Shown here in pieces: positions 1,360 through 43,740 of a stretch of 64,000 nucleotides of DNA. The DNA is taken from assembly GCA_900175165.2 (NCBI GenBank), contig FWWN02000646.1, forward strand, positions 124,001 to 188,000, written 5' to 3'. Made by a program: the position numbers and the translations under genes. Source of the stretch: Rhizomucor pusillus (taxonomy: Eukaryota > Mucoromycota > Mucoromycetes > Mucorales > Lichtheimiaceae). The notes beneath the pieces are model-generated. The model searched no databases. It saw nothing but the letters and a program-made list of their open reading frames with translations, and was not told the origin of the DNA. Every line of letters starts with the position of its first letter. Positions within the stretch are counted from its first letter, which is position 1.

Positions 1360-4019
1360 ATGTTCACCATATCTCGCGCTTTACTGCTCTCAGCTGCAAT
1401 CGGGACTTTTATGGGTGCCAATGCATTCCAGGTACGTTTCTAGAAACTGTGCGTCAAGAAGATGTTTGATGGATTGACGTTTCATGACGATGCAGAACGA
1501 CTGCAATAACAACATTGCAATGTGTAAGTCTGCTGTCCATTCAATTTCTTGACGCTTCTTACTAACTGACCTCGTTAGACTGGGGTCAGAATTCTTACGG
1601 CGCTACAAACGCTGCTGACAAGGCTAATTGGCAAAAGTCTCTCAAATACTACTGCGATGACGATTCCATCGATATCATCCCCATTGCCTTCTTGACAACC
1701 TTCTTCAGCAAGGATGGTCTGCCTAGCATTAACCTTGCTAACGTAGGTGCCTCATTGTATTCTGCTTACATGAACTTTACAGCTCATTATAATTGTAACA
1801 ATAGACTTGCAACAATGTCGATAACTCCACATTCCCGGAAACTGAACTTCCAAACTGCAGTGCTCTAGCAGAGGACATTGAATACTGTCAAAGCAAGGGC
1901 AAGGCTCTCACACTTTCTCTCGGAGGCGCCACTGGTGGTGTCGGTTTCCAATCTGACAGTCAAGCTACTGAATTTGCTGACACGATCTGGAACGTATTCT
2001 TGGGCGGCTCTTCCTCGACTCGTCCTTTCGGAAAAGCCATTCTAGACGGGTACCTTATCATTGCTTCATTTCTGATTCAATTGGATGCGTGGAGACTAAT
2101 ATGCAACTAATTTTAGCATTGATTTGGATATCGAAGGCGGTGGCTCCAATTGTAAGCAATCAATATTCGCATACATCTGCAAATGTTAGTTCGTGTCTGA
2201 CCACATCTCTGTAGACTATACATCTTTCCTCAAGAAGCTGGATTCCCATTTTAGCAGCAGTAGCAAGAAATACTACGTGACTGCAGCTCCTCAATGTGTC
2301 TACCCAGATGCAAACTTGGGAAATACTATTAACAACTACCCATTCGACGCAATTTACGTTCAATTTTGTAAGTCTGTGAAAGCAAACCTTGAAAACTAAT
2401 GGATGGAAGTACTGAAATTGCCGCTGCTTAACTAGATAATAACCCTTGCGGTCTCCAAACGTACGGTCAAGCGAATAACTGGAACTATGGACTATGGGAC
2501 TACTGGGCTCAAAACATCTCGCCGAACAAGGATGTCAAGGTTTACATTGGTGCACCTGCAAGCAGTTCTGCCGCTGGTGGAGGTTATGTTTCCGGTTCTA
2601 CCTTGCAAAAAATTGCAGAGGACACACAAAAATCATTCCCGAGTTTCGGAGGAGTCATGTTCTGGGGTAAGAGAAAGAATGCCTGCCAATTACCTGCTAT
2701 TTACAAGCATTCGCTGCTAAACAATGATAAACAATAGATGCTTCTCAAGCATACGCCAATGGAAAGATCCACGCCGGAATCAAATCGTCCATGGGTGGTT
2801 GTAGCAAGGGATTCACATATCCCGAATGCAGTGCCCCAGCCTGGGAGTCTGGTAAGACCTACAGCGCTGGTCAGAAAGTTTCGTACAAGTAAGTCCAAAT
2901 CATTGCCTTGGATATTACATTTCATTGACTAATTGCGATATTCCTAATCCAGTGGGTAAGTTGAAATATATAGAGATGGCAAGTAGCACAGCATTAATGG
3001 GGGTGTTCGGCGATTTTTTCCGCTGAGTAGATACATCTGGACGGTGAGTTCCCTAAAGAAAATCGTATAATGTATGCAGCAAAATATTGATTCTTTTCTA
3101 ATCCTAGGCAAAATGGTCTGCTTCAGAAGCTCCCAAAGCGGATGCTGGCGGCAATTGGATGCCAACAAGCGCATGCAAAGGTGGCAGCAGTGGCGGTGAT
3201 TCCAGCAGCTCTGGTAGCTCAACAGTGTCTACAAGCAAAGCTTTTACCAGTACTTCTGCTGGCCCAATTAGTACTACGGAAACAGCATCGGAGACACCAA
3301 CCTCTGCTCCTACTACAACGACAAAGACCCTCGAACCTTCTACTACGACGACCACTGCGACAATTTCCCCTACAACAACCTCTTCATATGGGAATGGCGG
3401 CTCTGGTTCTTGCAATGGTGTCTCTGCTTGGTCCGCGACCGAGACCTACACCCAAGGATCGAAGGTTGTATACGGCAACAAAGTATGGGTTGCTTCCCAA
3501 TGGTCATACAACGATGTGCCTGGTGGAAGCAGCGGTGTTTGGAAATCTCAAGGTGCATGCACGGCCGATTCAGCAGCTGCCGCCAACGCTGGTAAGCTTT
3601 TACATATTCTATTTAATCGAAATTGATTTCTAATGCATATAACGTATATGCACATATCTTCCCAAAGCTCCCCTGAAACGCAATATCGGTAGTGAGAATT
3701 GCGAAGCGAATCTTGCGCAAGTATGGAAGCAAAACAAGGTGTATTTGACAAACGCCCGAACTCTTTACAAGGGAACCATATACCGTGCTCAATGGTTTAA
3801 CACGGTAAGTTAAAGGTGGTCTCATAAAGGGCTTGTTCATTTAGTAACTAGTGCGATGCTCTTCTCTTAGAATGCTGAGCCTGGTAAATCTTCTGCGTGG
3901 GAAGCAGATGAAGCTTGTACGTCGCTATACTTCCAACGAAGAAAGCTTCAACTTCTCCGTAAGCAACAGATATTCCAAAAAGTAATCGGTGATACTTAAC
4001 GTATTTTACAGGGCGTTAA
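1360..4019 (+). CDS. Secreted class III-type GH18 chitinase with chitin-binding modules
   Basis: Hydrolyses chitin beta-1,4 linkages, probably at the cell surface or outside the cell. My model has 14 exons (1360-1431, 1496-1523, 1579-1742, 1805-2049, 2117-2151, 2215-2367, 2436-2666, 2738-2888, 2953-2955, 3031-3043, 3108-3591, 3668-3804, 3871-3916, 4012-4019) and gives 589 aa in frame. The first ~22 residues form a signal peptide. YWGQN opens the GH18 domain. The DGIDLDIE catalytic motif spans the junction at 2049/2117 and contains the acid Glu. Also seen are VQFYNNPCG and a C-terminal FW strand. After the catalytic domain come three aromatic-rich, CBM5/12-like modules separated by Ser/Thr-rich linkers. 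Exon 9 is only 3 nt and exon 10 is 13 nt. The 3' end is the least certain part: an alternative acceptor would move the stop to 4089. Confidence 0.93.
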
Positions 4020-4426
4020 AGACATGAACGAGTATCCTTCAGTTGAACCGCGGCAGACATCTGGAATGGCACTGCAAAATAACGTCTAACTTAAATCAGA
4101 TCATCTCTACTCTTTATCTTTTATCCCCCTTCTATCCCCAATAAACATATATATATATATATATATATATTTCCCGGGAAGCATTTGTAATATTGATATA
4201 CCATATGTCACGGTGAAGGATGTAAGGGCAGTATCTTTCTTCCATTCCAGTTTTCCAAGTTTATAACCAGCATGCAGCGAGTCAAGACAGCATTCTGTCT
4301 CGGATATTTTCCTTTTATACGACGAGGGTCAAGGACCTGATCAACCCCCTTGTACGCTCCTGTATAAAAGATGTCGAGAGATGGACTCTGTATTTCTTCA
4401 TCCGCAGCTGGAGATAACCTAGCATC
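4020..4426. other. Chitinase 3' region and short intergenic stretch
   Basis: Holds the chitinase 3' untranslated region, including an AATAAA-like ATAAACA at 4141 and a dinucleotide microsatellite. No gene is seen. Confidence 0.6.
4147..4170. repeat. (AT)12 microsatellite
   Basis: A perfect run of twelve AT dinucleotides just downstream of the chitinase; length polymorphism is likely. Confidence 0.9.
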
Positions 4427-37047: not shown

Positions 37048-38316
37048 TCATTCCTCGTCCTCATCATCCTCCTCGTCCTCCAATGATAACAGGTAGGAAT
37101 CGTCGTTGCGATATGTCTTGTGAACCATCATGAGAGCCAACAGTACTGGCAAATGGATCAAACTTCCAAAAAACAATTGACGAGCCGTCTTTTCGTCACT
37201 GATTGAGACAAGATATATCAGTACAACAATGTCCCTCCCACCAACAGTTCCTTGCCGTAAATACCTTTTCTGCCAGAATTTGTATGCCCCGTAGATGAGA
37301 GTTGCGTTCACAACCGATGAGTCGAGCGCGAACCACCAGGAAGTGAGATCCAGATAGGGTATGCTTAAACTTAGAGGCACCATTGCCAAGCTATGTCGCA
37401 GAGCAACCCGAGCATTCAGTTTCGGGTCTGTCACAGCCATCATGCGGTATCCAGCCTTGGAATAATCTGCTCTCAAGTTCCATGCCAGCGCGTTGAAGTG
37501 AGGGAACTGCCATGCATACAGGATACCGCCAAGGACCCAAGCTCCAGGCTCGAGTCCATTTGTAACAGCTGTCCATCCCATCATGGGCGGGATTGCGCCG
37601 ACAATAGCGCCCACCCACGTGTTGGCGATCGATGCTCGTTTCATGGGTGTATAGATACATGTATACAACAGCAGATTGGCTGCTCCTAGGGCGGCTGTAA
37701 GCGGGTTTACCATCGTTGCGAGCATGCTCACACCAGCTGCTCCTGTCAGGATGCCAAAGCTGAAGGCATGAAAAGATGATAGCTGCCGTCGTCCGAGCAC
37801 GCGATTTCGAGTTCGCAGCATTTGTGCGTCGTAAGGTACTTCAATCCATTGGTTGATGGCGTTGGCTGATGATATGCAGAGAGTTGTACCGACTGTGGTG
37901 TACAATAGAGTTGAAACAGTGGCTGCACCAGGCGCTATCGCATATCCACTCATAGTTGTAAGGGCGACGAGGAACGCTAACTTTGACTTTGACAGTTCCT
38001 TGTATAGTTTTGGAAGTTGTTTCAGGGAGGGCGGTAAAATAGGTTTATGTTTTGTAACGCGGTTCTGCTCCAGAGAATCTGGTTCGGTGTTGTGTACCAC
38101 TGTTGCATGTCGGGCAAAGACGAGATTGTATCGAGAAAGAGGTTGAATGGCGAGTGGCCTACTGGACAAGCACGACCGGCAAGCTGGACGTGTACTGAGC
38201 GAGAAAGATGCCAGCTGTGGATTCCGCGAACGTAGAATATGTTTGCTTGCAAACAGAATGCTGCGCCTGGACCGTGCTGGGAGCATTGCCTGTTTGTGGG
38301 CCGTTGGAAGTATCAA
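37048..38316 (-). CDS. COX10: COX10, protoheme IX farnesyltransferase
   Basis: Converts protoheme to heme O for cytochrome c oxidase in the inner mitochondrial membrane. One 66-nt intron (37199-37264) lies inside the open frame; removed, the protein is 400 aa. A mitochondrial presequence is evident (MLPARSRRSILFASKHILRS; this second Met may be the true start). UbiA-family motifs: NAINQWIEVPYDAQMLRTRN (NxxxDxxxD-type site), YTPMKR, GAIVGAIPPMMGW, WQFPHFNALAW and DYSKAGYRMM. About eight to nine spans. An acidic C-terminal tail (EDEEDDEDEE) is unusual. Confidence 0.95.
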   Translation of the reverse strand: MILPTAHKQAMLPARSRRSILFASKHILRSRNPQLASFSLSTRPACRSCLSSRPLAIQPLSRYNLVFARHATVVHNTEPDSLEQNRVTKHKPILPPSLKQLPKLYKELSKSKLAFLVALTTMSGYAIAPGAATVSTLLYTTVGTTLCISSANAINQWIEVPYDAQMLRTRNRVLGRRQLSSFHAFSFGILTGAAGVSMLATMVNPLTAALGAANLLLYTCIYTPMKRASIANTWVGAIVGAIPPMMGWTAVTNGLEPGAWVLGGILYAWQFPHFNALAWNLRADYSKAGYRMMAVTDPKLNARVALRHSLAMVPLSLSIPYLDLTSWWFALDSSVVNATLIYGAYKFWQKRYLRQGTVGGRDIVVLIYLVSISDEKTARQLFFGSLIHLPVLLALMMVHKTYRNDDSYLLSLEDEEDDEDEE

Positions 38317-38935
38317 GGCCCCATTGTCGGGGTATTCATATAGAGATCTCTAAGCCTCTACGATTGCTTAAACGTATGAAACGGTGATAGAAAGAACGCA
38401 AGCTATGATGGATACATTTAACCATGAACTTTTCATATCCTCAAAACTAGGAATGCTACGCGGATTTAGCAGAAAATACTTTAAAGTAGCAAAGTCAAAC
38501 AGCACGCCAAATGCTGCTTGTCACGACAAGTTGACAAGCATAAATACCACACTTTATATGTTTCTTGTCCAAAACACACATTTTGAAGCAATTTGACAGC
38601 TCTCTTTGAGGGAGCAAACACATACGCAGAACTCTTACAAAATTGTATATATTACGGACTCGGACGGAACATATCGTAAGTAAGTCACGTGATTCTGGAC
38701 AAAAAAGTACGCGAGACCAGTTGGCAGAATCTACTGCATTTTTATAGACAGTTTACCTTTGGAAAGAAATTAATAAACATTCTTCTCGAATTAGAGTCCA
38801 TACACACTTGCCATTTCGGGCTTAAACTTGCGACAGTGCGATGCCAGCGCTCCAAATAACGCAAAATGTCTCTCAATGAGTAAAGTTTCGATATCGGAAA
38901 CATGGATCACGGCTTACCGATATACTAAGCAAATA
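38317..38935. other. Intergenic
   Basis: COX10 promoter and 3' flank of the Fanzor relic. No gene seen; an AT-rich stretch at 38640-38690 includes the near-palindrome around TACGGACTCGGACGGAACAT. Confidence 0.5.
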
Positions 38936-41640
38936 CTAAACCCATCCGGGTCCGGCATTCGTAGCCGTGATTTGTTGCTTAGGCCGGACAAACGGGCCAG
39001 GGCGACCATTGCCCGACCAGATAGATGTAGCGATGTGGAACATATTTTTGCAGGCGTTCGTGTCTCTATTCCATAATATGCCACAGTTCTTGCATACTTG
39101 CAAACCATGGTGACGCACGCCGTCTGCAGTACTGACATTTTTCAAGCTCCTCCCTTGGCAATTATGGCAAATCTGATGTATTAACATGGCTTTAGAAGAT
39201 GTTTGAGAGGGATTTTGCAGTTGCCAGTTACCTGCGACGTTAAGTATTCATCAANNNNNNNNNNNNNNNNNNNNNNNNNNNNNNNNNNNNNNNNNNNNNN
39301 NNNNNNCACCAACGAGACCAGGCCGATGACCCTTCATTGGGACATTATCTTTGCCGAACATTCCATTGCTAAATACCACTAACGGCAACTTCCCTTCAGA
39401 TTTTGGAGTGAACTTCGCTTTTGCCCATTTCTTCTGTTTCATATCAGGCTTATTCTTGTCTTCTTGTAGAGTCGATCTCACTGCAGATTCATTTTGGATG
39501 TGCAATCTGGAAGTCCGCGCTGGAAACTTAGCCATTTGTTCTGAAATATTGGTACGTCTTATTACCTTATTCCTGTAAGATCCCTCCGTTTCCGTTTAAA
39601 TAGCTTTCTCCTTCGATTTTGCTTTTCCCGTTCCCGACGGTTTCTCCTCCTGTGTTTTCTCTTCGCAGAGTTGTATTTCTTTCCTCCATTAACGATGACA
39701 TTCACTAGTTCTTCTTGTGCCCTTTGTTGCCTTGATATGCTCTGAATCTTCTCTCTGCGTCATTGTCGAAGCAATAGAATGTGAATAGGGTTTCCAAGTG
39801 TAAGAAAAGATACCGCACGTATTCACTGTATCGTGTAATGTCTGTAGTCTTTGCACTCGGAAAATTGGATTTGATCTTTTCAATGCCATTTCGCCTTCTG
39901 GCCTTCTTGAGGTTTTCGTTCCTTTTCGGCGATCCTGTCCATTGGTAATACTCCCTCGAAGACGAACGTCGAATTTCATGCTCTGTGTTTTGAGCACCAT
40001 ATGCAGCTTGGAAAATATCCCGTCTCCGGGATCCAGAGCGCAGGGCATGAAATAGTTTTGGATTTCTTCTTCTTTGAAATCTGAAAGTCCTAATTCCATC
40101 CCGGGACTTGTTGCAGGTCTTGCGAAATGTAATGACAACTGGAAGCCATTGGTTGTGACCATGTTGGTAAACATGCATTCTTCGCTGCTAAACAACGCAT
40201 AAGAAATTATAAATCACTATTACACTAAAAATCCACTTACGAAAAATCGATACAGATTGAAATCAAGCACAGTCTTGAACGTATTGGTTTTTTGTTGAAT
40301 GTGTTACGGAGGTTCCCAACTGAAGATTTGTTGCCAAACTTGCTGCATCGATGTCCACAAACCGCCAATGCAATGATGGTTGTGGCGTCAGAGCAAATAA
40401 TTTTGGCAAAGTCTTTCAGATCTTCTCGTTTCCCTGCTCGTGCTCCAGTGTATACTGCAATAGTATAAAACGCAACGCAGGAATGAACCTTCCAGGATTT
40501 CCCGCCATTTCAGTTGTTGTGTATGGTTCAGGAATATAGCCTTTTAGCGAGATTTGTATGGTATGTATCGCTAAGATAATGTCGAGATCACAGTCTTCTT
40601 GTAGCTACTCCGGTATTGTGGGATTGCCTCCGGCAAGATCTTTGTAAATATACTTGTTAGCTAATTTAGGTGCAAGATTGTTCGATATATTCTTTACGGG
40701 TTAACAGTTAACATAGATGCTTATCATGAGACACAACACTTATGTCGCCTTACTGGTATAAGTCTTTGGAGCTTGGATATGACGAATTTTTCCACTCTGT
40801 CCTGGAAATGTTCGACGATCATATTGCTATACGTAGTTTGGAGCGTTTGGCAAGCCCAAGCAAGCGGATTCGCGTATCCTCGAATGCTTGCTTGCGTAAA
40901 GATTGCCGAAGGATATTGCGTTTTGAAGCGATCCCAACAGTTGCGGATGTCATTAGGCATCTTGTCATTGGTGTTTGTTATTTCCATATCCCATCACGAG
41001 CTGGGATACGGAATAGAAAAATGTCTGTGAAAAGACATAGGCCGGAATCGCATTGTGCGCGTGCTCCACAATGTAAAAATTAACAAAGATCATCACTCGA
41101 ACAATGACATTCCGTATGAAGGATGACAGTTGTTGGATTCCCTTCTGTAGCTGTTCTTGATAATCTTCTTTAACAATTCCTGACAGGGATACGATGCGAG
41201 TATAACGCTCGAAATTCCTTCCAAATCGTGATATGAGGATCTACTCCAGAGCTTGGACATGGTAAGGACAATCCTTGGATGTAGATCTTGAATGACTAGT
41301 GGAACCGCATCTGGGACAGGGTTTGTACTTTCATTTGCATTGGCCCTTCCCTTCTGTATCCTGCCCTTTTTTCTTTCTTTGTTTTTCTTCTTCATTTTCT
41401 GTATCTGTTTGTTTCCTTTTCTTGCCAACTAGCACAACGTTAATTCGAGGTATGAATGATCGTGCCGTAAACGTGCTCACCTTTGCCACTTTCGGTAAAA
41501 AGCTTGCACTGTCTATTGGTCTTCATCTTGTGGCCTTTTTCGCCACAGTGCTTGCAAATAAATGTGGGTGAAATATATCAGTAAAAGTTTGCCTTGTGCC
41601 CCTTTGGACTCTGCTCACACCTACCTTCTGCAGCTTCTGT
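38936..41640 (-). pseudogene. Decayed Fanzor (eukaryotic TnpB-like RNA-guided nuclease)
   Basis: Reading 5' to 3' on the minus strand: CCHC knuckle CKHCGEKGHKMKTNRQC (41556-41506); 52-nt intron (41429-41480); Lys-rich linker; second knuckle CPRCGSTSHSRSTSKDCP (about 41318-41265); helical REC-like region (FERYTRIVSLSG, YANPLAWACQTLQTTYSNMI, VEHFQDRVEKFVISKLQ); HWRFVDIDAASL; FTNMVTTNGFQLSLHFARP; RuvC-I CALDPG (Asp codon 40031-40033); EYYQWTGSPKR; TFYCFDNDAERRFRAYQGNK; GGKKYNSAKRKHRR; LPLVVFSNGMFGKDN; DEYLTSQ (39252 down, beside the N gap); zinc ribbon CHNC ... CKNCG; RuvC-III NRDTNACKNM (39064). Stops interrupt it at about 41331, 41241, 40965, 40606 and 40416, with frameshifts near 40985, 39960 and 39705. 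The last exon (38936-39172) and its intron are intact. No functional protein can be made from this copy. Confidence 0.82.
39255..39306. other. Assembly gap (52 N)
   Basis: A run of N inside the Fanzor relic, between the LPLVVFSNGMFG block and DEYLTSQ. True length unknown; the RuvC-II acidic residue region probably lies partly inside it. Confidence 0.95.
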
Positions 41641-43740
41641 CAACTCCTTCTTCTTGCTTTTTGAAAACTAAGAGCAGTAATGGAGGATAGATAGTATGCT
41701 TAGCGAGACTAGGAGAGCAGGAAACAGTTCAATGAAAGAATAAAACGTGGTATTTTGCAGTTCTTCCATCTTGCGTAAAGGAAAACAGAAAACAGGAAAG
41801 AAGAGGAAAACAAGTCATAGATGACGCGGGCCCGTAGCTGACAACTCTTTTTCTTTTCTTCTTGTGGGGCACAAGACAGAATTAAACGAGTATGAATGGT
41901 ATTAATGCGCTTTAGGGATTTGTGAAGGATTGACATGAGTACGCCTACATACCTTTCCATGTTCCAATTTATGAATCTTCAGATCCAGGTTTGTAGCCAA
42001 GAAGGTTTACATTTGCGACACATAAACTTCAAAATAGTCTGCATATCGCTCTCTCTGAGTTCCCTTGTTTATGCTTGATGCCCTCAAGTTACGATCAGAA
42101 CTCAGGATCGAAAGTCGTTCTACTAGAGTAGTATGTAGAGTTGTGCTGTTGATTAGCTAGGAGTCAAGACATCAAAACGAGCAGTGTATTGATGTACCGA
42201 GTTTTCAATCCTCTTAAGTTACTCCCTTGTTTTGACAGGTGGTGTCTTATTTATCATGTACACGGTTATTTATTCTGTCAGACATACGGAAGACAGTGAT
42301 GATATATATGCGGGTACGTTTGAGGAAGAAGAAACGGATAAGAGGCACAGTAATATACAGCAAACCGCTTTCGGATGCTTATCTGCAAATCCGGACTGGT
42401 CGATCTCTATCCGCCAGCACGTTTTTGGGATAATCTTTTCAAGTTGCACACGTCTATATTTGTTAATCCGATGGTTGTAGTTTACAACAGAAATCTGAAT
42501 TGATGAGCAAGATAGCTTAGAGGCGGACTGATATCGAGATAACATGACAGAGGATCGAAACAACGCTTGATGAGTCACTAGCCAGCACGATTGGAAAGCA
42601 AACAACTTGTCGGTCACGTTTTCTGTGCATCATTCAGGTGGGACGATCGTTATGATTCTTTTTCCTTTTTCGTTCGAGAGCTTATTCAAAGTGTGTTTGA
42701 TTGCTGACCAGAATATAAACGGCTATCAAAGGCAGAACGACAAAAACTCAACTCAGAGTTAAGCGAGTAAATGTGGAACGTTGCTACGGTTACGACTTAC
42801 CGTTAGTTCAACAGGTTTTCGAAAAACGTAGATTGCTACCTTTTTGCGCTTGCCAAATAGCTAAGATAATGCAAAATCCAAGATGTGTCCCTGGTAGAAT
42901 TATCTAAATATCCTGCCAAGGGATCATTAGACGATGGTTCATATCATTGGCAGCATGAATGCCTTAATCGATGGTACGTATTCGACAAGGAAGGATGGAT
43001 CTCGTAATCCCAATCTCAAATTGGTTTCCTTGGGGCAAAAGGCTTCCTTCCATAACCATTTATGCAGTTAGCGAGATTTCTCGGTTTCCATTTTGCTGTC
43101 GTATACATTGTAAGGCAGAGGAATGGAGTGATTATAAAAAGAGCGGCCCTCGTCCTATCGTTCATTTCGATGACATTGTCTGTCCAAAATACAACGAAGT
43201 AACATCCATAAATTTTTCTCTGAATCTCAGGCGCGAATTTGAATTCAAAAACCTGCAGCTTTGGGCATTGCTCAAATGCTACGCAATCGAGAGACAGCGA
43301 CCTCAAAAGACTTTCTTGCGATGGTCACTACTCTCTTTTGTTCTTCATTTTCTTTTTAGGATTCGAGTCCACTTTTTGAAGGGATTTACGCCATAGGCCA
43401 CCCAACCCGGAAAGGAATGAAAGAGGCCTCTAGCGAAGCCAGCAAACAAGTGACCGTTGACACGCCAGAGCTACGCACCCAGATCAGGGGAGGAATCAAA
43501 AAAAGCCAGGCTGCGCAGGATCGAGCTCCCCACTCAGAGGTTACAGGCTTACTGCCCGAAAGTTCTTGCTGCTACGCTTCTGAGGACTCGTCTTGGGACT
43601 GACACCTGTTAGCTTCCATTGGGCACGCAAAGCAGAGGTACCCCATCTGGTCCTCCCAAGATCTGGCAGGGTAGAGCCCACGAGGGGCATATGGCGTCGA
43701 GGATAAGGAAAAGAAAAAGAGAGGTCGAGAGGAAAGGCCC

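What the first reader, a model, noticed from the sequence alone, without database searches (positions are those of the whole stretch)
38936..41640. Decayed Fanzor, a eukaryotic TnpB-like RNA-guided nuclease locus
The minus strand keeps the full order of parts expected for a Fanzor: two N-terminal zinc knuckles, the REC-like helical region, RuvC-I (ALDPG), the EYY...G..KR and FY...R...Y.G blocks, DEYLTSQ, the CxxC/CxxC zinc ribbon and RuvC-III (NRDTNA). At least five in-frame stops and about three frameshifts break it, yet the last exon and its intron are intact. The family is established as RNA-guided DNA nucleases carried by eukaryotic transposons; this copy would be a genomic fossil next to COX10.
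Basis: partly seen in the sequence, partly recalled or inferred. Interest (0 to 1): 0.9.

Follow-up and report, generated by a model that had tools for sequence, protein, structure and literature searches.

The report
Dead RNA-guided nuclease in fungal transposon
Beside the COX10 gene of a Rhizomucor fungus lies a dead copy of a jumping DNA element that once carried a Fanzor, the eukaryotic cousin of CRISPR nucleases, and related copies in the same genome suggest that the end of the element encoded its guide RNA.

Summary
The minus strand carries a broken Fanzor gene, most like Fanzor1: DPG in RuvC-I, a glutamate six residues before a C4 zinc ribbon, WNRD in RuvC-III, introns, stops and frame changes. 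The fungus is Rhizomucor; protein VTP01DRAFT_10803 of R. pusillus is this same copy with the same shifted reading. New here: its last ~250 bases, beyond the stop codon, are shared by three Fanzor families, are more conserved between two of them (81% in the last step) than the coding DNA (47-59% where readable), and fold into one nested structure with compensatory changes: the expected omega-RNA scaffold. The window copy lacks 44 bases of its 3' arms, so protein and RNA are both dead. Within the family the three codon positions diverge alike (neutral decay); between families the third diverges most (past protein selection). Fanzors of Mucorales are already known; this is a new member, with two N-terminal CX2CX4HX7C motifs. 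Expression, cleavage and fold were not tested.

The parts
38734..43255 (-). Whole decayed Fanzor element, family A (gene orientation 43255 to 38734)
   Evidence: Ends read from sister copies; 5' end at 13 places and 3' end at 30 places of the own genome by DNA search, lower bounds
43256..43257 (.). Flanking dinucleotide at the 5' end: TG here, TA in most copies
   Evidence: 18 of 20 matched termini begin with TA (the pattern itself contained TA, up to 3 mismatches)
38732..38733 (.). TA at the 3' end, possible target-site duplication
   Evidence: TA in 8 of 9 family A 3' ends read; no empty site available
41671..41769 (-). N-terminal exon candidate, MEELQ... hydrophobic segment
   Evidence: counterpart in family B with codon-position differences 9, 4, 16
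41268..41556 (-). Two CX2CX4HX7C motifs (41556-41506 and 41318-41268) with an intron candidate 41480-41428 between
   Evidence: also in other family A copies
40240..41240 (-). REC/WED-like region, with stops and a frame change
   Evidence: part of it aligns with Guillardia Fanzor1
39560..40187 (-). RuvC-I (ALDPG 40039-40025) and following blocks, with frame changes
38936..39540 (-). RuvC-II (DEYLTSQ), intron 39231-39173, C4 zinc ribbon, RuvC-III (WNRD), stop 38938-38936; 52 N at 39255-39306
38734..38935 (-). 3' non-coding end, candidate omega-RNA scaffold; 44 bases lost at the junction 38755/38754
37048..38349 (-). COX10 (UbiA family) open frame downstream, not part of the element

Best explanation
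A dead copy of a TA-flanked, probably Tc1/mariner-like, non-autonomous transposon of Rhizomucor whose only recognised cargo was a Fanzor1-type RNA-guided nuclease and, in its 3' end, the omega-RNA. Shown here: the protein family, the element family and its ends, past protein selection, neutral decay of the copies, a conserved RNA-like structure in the 3' end and the loss of its 3' arms in this copy. Inferred: in a live copy a transcript of the 3' end ran past the flanking TA into host DNA, which served as guide; the nuclease with that RNA cut the same site where the element was missing (TA being part of the recognised motif), and repair from an occupied copy kept or multiplied the element. A transposase came from elsewhere.
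For: Fanzor fingerprints DPG and E six residues before the zinc ribbon (definition in PMC10711439 section 23). PF07282 30.0 bits over cut-off in the read-through and 40.3 bits in P0003, the unaltered annotated protein of this locus in another R. pusillus assembly. Fanzor1 structures hit by sequence and by profile, which however contains the Fanzor-like P0005. Sister copies and shared ends (reversed-pattern control 0). Codon positions: C49 against window 25/563, 21/564, 17/566; C49 against three family B copies 0.40-0.46, 0.33-0.36, 0.66-0.69. 3' end: 81.1% identity A to B in the last 150-base step against 46.7-58.9% in the readable coding steps; energy z -6.5, 0 of 300 shuffles; 95.7% of 509 cells paired, slid controls 24.0-41.2%; coding-block control z -0.77, 30 of 150.
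Against: Outside Rhizomucor the protein relatives found are few and distant (22% identity). The WED motif given as TDG for Fanzor1 reads TNG here. No transposase domain, no empty site, weak terminal repeats. In the pair count, two of five measures do not exceed the shuffles (pairs with both-side changes 102 of 500, further pair types 337 of 500), and most both-side changes fall on the one split between family C and A/B, so independent events are few. The opposite strand also scores z -4.6. No expression data. Rfam gave no match.
Confidence: 0.88

Rival explanations
1. The conserved 3' end is DNA used by a transposase (a long terminal region), not an RNA.
For: It adjoins the terminal repeat, and DNA conservation alone would give high identity; the opposite strand also scores below shuffles.
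Against: The match between families A and B at the 5' end seen here is about 26 bases against about 230 at the 3' end. Compensatory pairs 77/234, 101/209 and 103/207 and z -5.1 within family C alone point to a folded strand.
Confidence: 0.12
2. The locus is still a working or domesticated gene.
For: An annotated 478-residue protein with PF07282 covers it in another assembly.
Against: That model follows the shifted frame after DPG; three stops are private to this copy; codon positions show no third-position excess; the RNA part is deleted too.
Confidence: 0.03
3. It is a Fanzor2 or a TnpB of an IS607-type element rather than a Fanzor1.
For: DPG and the alternative glutamate do not separate Fanzor1 from Fanzor2 (PMC10711439 section 23); no tree was made.
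Against: For the single sequence the only Protein Data Bank matches at E<=1 are Fanzor1; long helical region; TA-flanked ends with terminal repeats instead of an IS607 element; no serine recombinase domain in the frames scanned.
Confidence: 0.05

Closest known systems
Fanzor1 families of Mucorales: Mucor circinelloides (10), Rhizopus oryzae (4), Phycomyces blakesleeanus (3) (PMC3627910; outline, passages, sections 6 and 12 read)
   Same: Mucorales host; D...[TS][TS]xx-C4-RD motif; carried by DNA transposons, some without a transposase
   Different: Those classed there were MuDr-like with 9-bp duplications or unclassified; this one has TA ends. Their sequences are in supplements not available here, so identity was not tested.
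Tc1/mariner elements with Fanzor1 only, such as PUl-4 (PMC3627910, passage)
   Same: TA at both ends, Fanzor as the only recognised protein
   Different: There the terminal repeats are identical to confirmed mariners; here they are short, imperfect and tied to no transposase
SpuFz1 and GtFz1, characterised Fanzor1 nucleases (PMC10432273, passages only; PMC11423790, passages and discussion read)
   Same: RuvC-I/-II/-III and zinc ribbon; omega-RNA from the 3' end; ghost elements without the gene (Spizellomyces)
   Different: Those are live; third catalytic residue N in GtFz1, D here; the two N-terminal motifs are not in the part aligned
Fanzor1 reRNA of insect viruses (PMC10711439, passages, sections 23 and 27 read)
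   Same: A multi-stem scaffold next to or including the terminal repeat, without pseudoknot
   Different: Shown there by small-RNA reads; here by comparison only, and larger

Membership tests
Fanzor | DPG motif in RuvC-I | tested here: met
   ALDPG at 40039-40025; also in P0003 and in a family A protein from C316. One family B protein, P0004, has VPG, another, P0008, has DPG
Fanzor | Catalytic glutamate six residues before the zinc finger | tested here: met
   E-YLTSQI-C across the intron 39231-39173; same in P0003
Fanzor | D-X(125,275)-[TS][TS]xx-C4-X(5,50)-RD | tested here: met
   About 255 residues from D to TS in the read-through (numbering), which includes a K/R-rich stretch that may be partly intron; WNRD five residues after the last Cys
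Fanzor | PF07282 zinc-ribbon domain over its cut-off | tested here: met
   30.0 bits joined, 40.3 in P0003; last exon alone 20.4, below; NCBIfam guided_TnpB 33.1 bits, below its cut-off of 100
Fanzor1 | TDG motif in the WED domain | tested here: inconclusive
   TTNG here and in P0004; KTDG in P0005
Fanzor1 | REC2 of paired kinked helices | not testable with these tools
Fanzor1 | Carried by a canonical eukaryotic transposon, multi-copy | tested here: met
Fanzor1 | omega-RNA encoded at the 3' end | tested here: inconclusive
   Conserved structured region with compensatory changes; transcription not tested
Fanzor1 | RNA-guided DNA cleavage | not testable with these tools
   This copy is broken; no assay
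Tc1/mariner transposon | TA target-site duplication and terminal inverted repeats | tested here: inconclusive
   TA at 8 of 9 family A 3' ends and at 9 of 11 5' ends listed plus one TA followed by a changed repeat; repeats about 12 bp and imperfect; no empty site
Tc1/mariner transposon | Encodes a DDE transposase | tested here: not met
   No transposase domain at E<=0.1 in the seven frames of the 5' part scanned; the genome has 161 DDE_3 matches that could act in trans

The most novel reading that the evidence does not exclude
Rhizomucor holds a distinct Fanzor branch with two N-terminal CX2CX4HX7C motifs and a conserved hydrophobic N-terminal segment, whose large omega-RNA scaffold is kept across three diverged nuclease families and also in shortened copies that have lost the nuclease; such guide-only copies could be served in trans by an intact family member.
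Probability: 0.25. Interest if true: 0.6.

Novelty: new member of a known kind. Interest (0 to 1): 0.38.

Why it matters
It shows that broken Fanzors hide in Mucorales annotation as unnamed proteins, and the three families give a comparative model of a Fanzor omega-RNA that ordinary small-RNA reads could test. The equal decay of all codon positions suggests that the family A copies examined were not selected for nuclease function after insertion.

Tried and rejected
Unrelated zinc-ribbon family: rejected, PF07282 and TnpB models are the best profile matches. Live gene: rejected. Empty site by the flanks of the C49 copy: its 3' flank belongs to a family of 39 places that coincide with mariner DDE_3 matches in many cases, its 5' flank does not (2 places), so none was found. 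Zinc motifs in family B: the stretch reads N. Rfam: no match at E<=0.1 in L041, L037, L064. 5' part of the element: no transposase. Mutation bias: C>T plus G>A are 33 of 96 private substitutions of the window copy, so no strong bias. Intact copy: none among the five long family A copies looked at (window, C49, C3, C316, C218); families B and C were not checked for one. BLAST with P0003 failed because alignment rows with gaps had replaced the protein; done correctly.

Full report
Organism. The genome has 24.45 Mb in 353 contigs. A homologue search with the read-through protein returned five proteins, four of them annotated in Rhizomucor pusillus. P0003 (VTP01DRAFT_10803) matches the window in four pieces at 99.4, 98.6, 100 and 75.1%, the last crossing the N stretch, and carries the same shifted reading after ALDPG. 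P0001, P0002 and P0006 match best the copies on C2 (90.3%), C316 (90.5%) and C218 (96.8%) over the parts aligned, of six sequences compared. So the insertions are probably shared by two assemblies of one species.

Protein. Six window pieces of the gene searched singly gave no family over its cut-off; the last exon reached PF07282 at 20.4 bits. Joined as a read-through, PF07282 rises to 30.0 bits, over the cut-off. By sequence the Protein Data Bank gives two matches at E<=1, Guillardia Fanzor1 (1.7e-6) and Spizellomyces Fanzor1 (0.4); an earlier search with one middle piece gave none. A six-row profile, which includes the Fanzor-like P0005, gives Spizellomyces 1.8e-12, Guillardia 1.1e-5 and two LaTranC chains at 0.13-0.14. 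P0005, on a contig ascribed to a bacterial MAG, hits the window at RuvC-I (E 1.7e-4) and the zinc ribbon (1.7e-7) in a small local database; PMC10711439 reports that the prokaryotic Fanzor1-like entries it checked had ambiguous or wrong taxonomy (passage). D, E and D of RuvC-I, -II and -III are all present.

Element. Searching the own genome with 38300-42800 gave 42 matching stretches including itself. Long sister copies lie on C49, C3, C316 and C218, partial ones on C2, C122, C286, C307, C266, C84, C207, C256 and C146. The ends are TA|CAGGTTTTTGAATTC at the 5' side and ..AAAAATGCAG|TA at the 3' side. In the window the 5' TA reads TG. Of nine family A 3' ends read (window, C49, C3, C316, C218, C84, C207, C256, C266), eight end in TA; C266 is degenerate. 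The base before the 5' dinucleotide is C in 8 of 11 copies read (binomial 0.0005 at an assumed C frequency of 0.22, noticed before it was tested). Family B (protein P0004) has the same 5' terminus with two changes (C104); 20 places carry this terminus with up to 3 mismatches, 0 in the reversed control. C207, C256 and C307 are shortened copies with the same internal junctions, all three cut by contig ends, and resemble the ghost elements of PMC10432273 (passages).

Decay and selection. Between family A copies substitutions are much alike at codon positions 1, 2 and 3: C49 against the window 25/563, 21/564, 17/566; single pairs vary either way, and no consistent third-position excess appears over 20 pairs with coding data. 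Between C49 and three family B copies (262, 297, 381 codons) the differences are 0.40-0.46, 0.33-0.36 and 0.66-0.69. So the protein was under selection while the families diverged, and the inserted copies decay freely. The five long family A copies examined are broken.

The 3' end as omega-RNA. Between A (C49) and B (C104) identity in 150-base steps is 46.7-58.9% from 2551 to 4200 of the element; earlier steps (39.6-48.6%) are unreliable because 1019 N of C104 were dropped; the last three steps are 68.8% (last exon), 63.9% and 81.1%. Family B copies match the 3' end of C49 at 75-80%. A third set (C) shares the last ~180 bases at 69-73% in seven copies read; three of its places (C172, C189, C29) lie beside PF07282 hits, the others do not. 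The 16-sequence alignment holds six A, four B and six C copies; C316, C218, C266 and C206 were held but left out, and C155, C144, C8, C225 and others were never fetched. It folds into nested helices 72-79/232-239, 85-93/221-229, 98-104/206-212 and 113-124/186-197. Pairs 77/234 (UA, GC), 101/209 (UA, CG) and 103/207 (GC, AU) change on both sides between A/B and C. Energy z is -6.5 for 15 sequences without the window (0 of 300 shuffles), -3.5 for nine A and B, -5.1 for six C (0 of 150 each), -0.77 for a coding block of seven (30 of 150); the opposite strand also scores -4.6 (0 of 150). In the pair count 95.7% of 509 cells pair (shuffles 92.0%, 0 of 500), cells with both-side changes 25 against 11.0 (0 of 500), covariation 0.221 against 0.157 (0 of 500), but pairs with both-side changes (6, 102 of 500) and pair types (20, 337 of 500) do not exceed the shuffles; slid versions pair 24.0-41.2%. 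The structure ends about 15 bases before the TA, so the terminal repeat adjoins the scaffold, as PMC10711439 (section 27) describes for Fanzor1 reRNA. A model of it found, among 24 sources held, four further copies, the window (173 bits, the lowest of the five strong matches) and one weak opposite-strand hit (E 0.29); it found nothing in the loci of the other Fanzor families (L001-L008, L059-L062), some of which may not reach their 3' end.

Window copy. It lacks 44 bases at 38755/38754 compared with C3, which removes the 3' arms of helices 2 and 3, most of helix 4's and part of helix 1's.

Setting. The element lies upstream of COX10 in the same direction, its 3' end 0.38 kb from the upper limit (38349) of that open frame; an effect on COX10 was not tested.

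What is known. Fanzor1 in Mucor, Rhizopus and Phycomyces was reported in 2013 (PMC3627910), and a Mucorales Fanzor1 structure exists (Parasitella, PMC11423790). No paper of the library holds both Rhizomucor and Fanzor. A search for at least two of Fanzor, zinc knuckle and CCHC listed 10 of 171 papers, none of the 10 with Fanzor; the word zinc does not occur in the main text of PMC11423790. That is weak evidence that the N-terminal motifs are undescribed.

Noticed in passing
G000 C244, C109, C261, C67, C305, C285, C133 (L001, L002, L006, L008, L059-L062): Several other Fanzor-like families in the same genome, for example with IWGVDPG or VDEYNTSKVCPRC, also interrupted in the frames read.
   Followed up: partly
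window 41769-41671 (-), L041:5508-5591, L058:1670-1753: A hydrophobic N-terminal segment (SFIELFSALLVSLSIPIYPPLLLL) is conserved between families A and B with mostly third-position differences (9, 4, 16), odd for a nuclear nuclease.
   Followed up: partly
G000 whole genome; C49:31643-31801: At least 161 matches to the DDE_3 (Tc1/mariner) transposase family; one lies directly after the 3' end of the C49 Fanzor copy.
   Followed up: partly
G000 C219, C206, C197, C341, C184, C9: Places that match only the last 95-145 bases of the 3' end: possible further ghost elements. Only C206 was read.
   Followed up: no
alignment A2, columns 15-28: GGTAAG, like a 5' splice site, near the start of the conserved 3' region in most copies of the three families, at shifted columns in family C.
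   Followed up: no
NCBI proteins VTP01DRAFT_6862, 9833, 10803, 9516, 4597, 3614, 2308: Annotated R. pusillus proteins that are fragments of decayed Fanzor copies joined by gene prediction; all are named hypothetical.
   Followed up: partly
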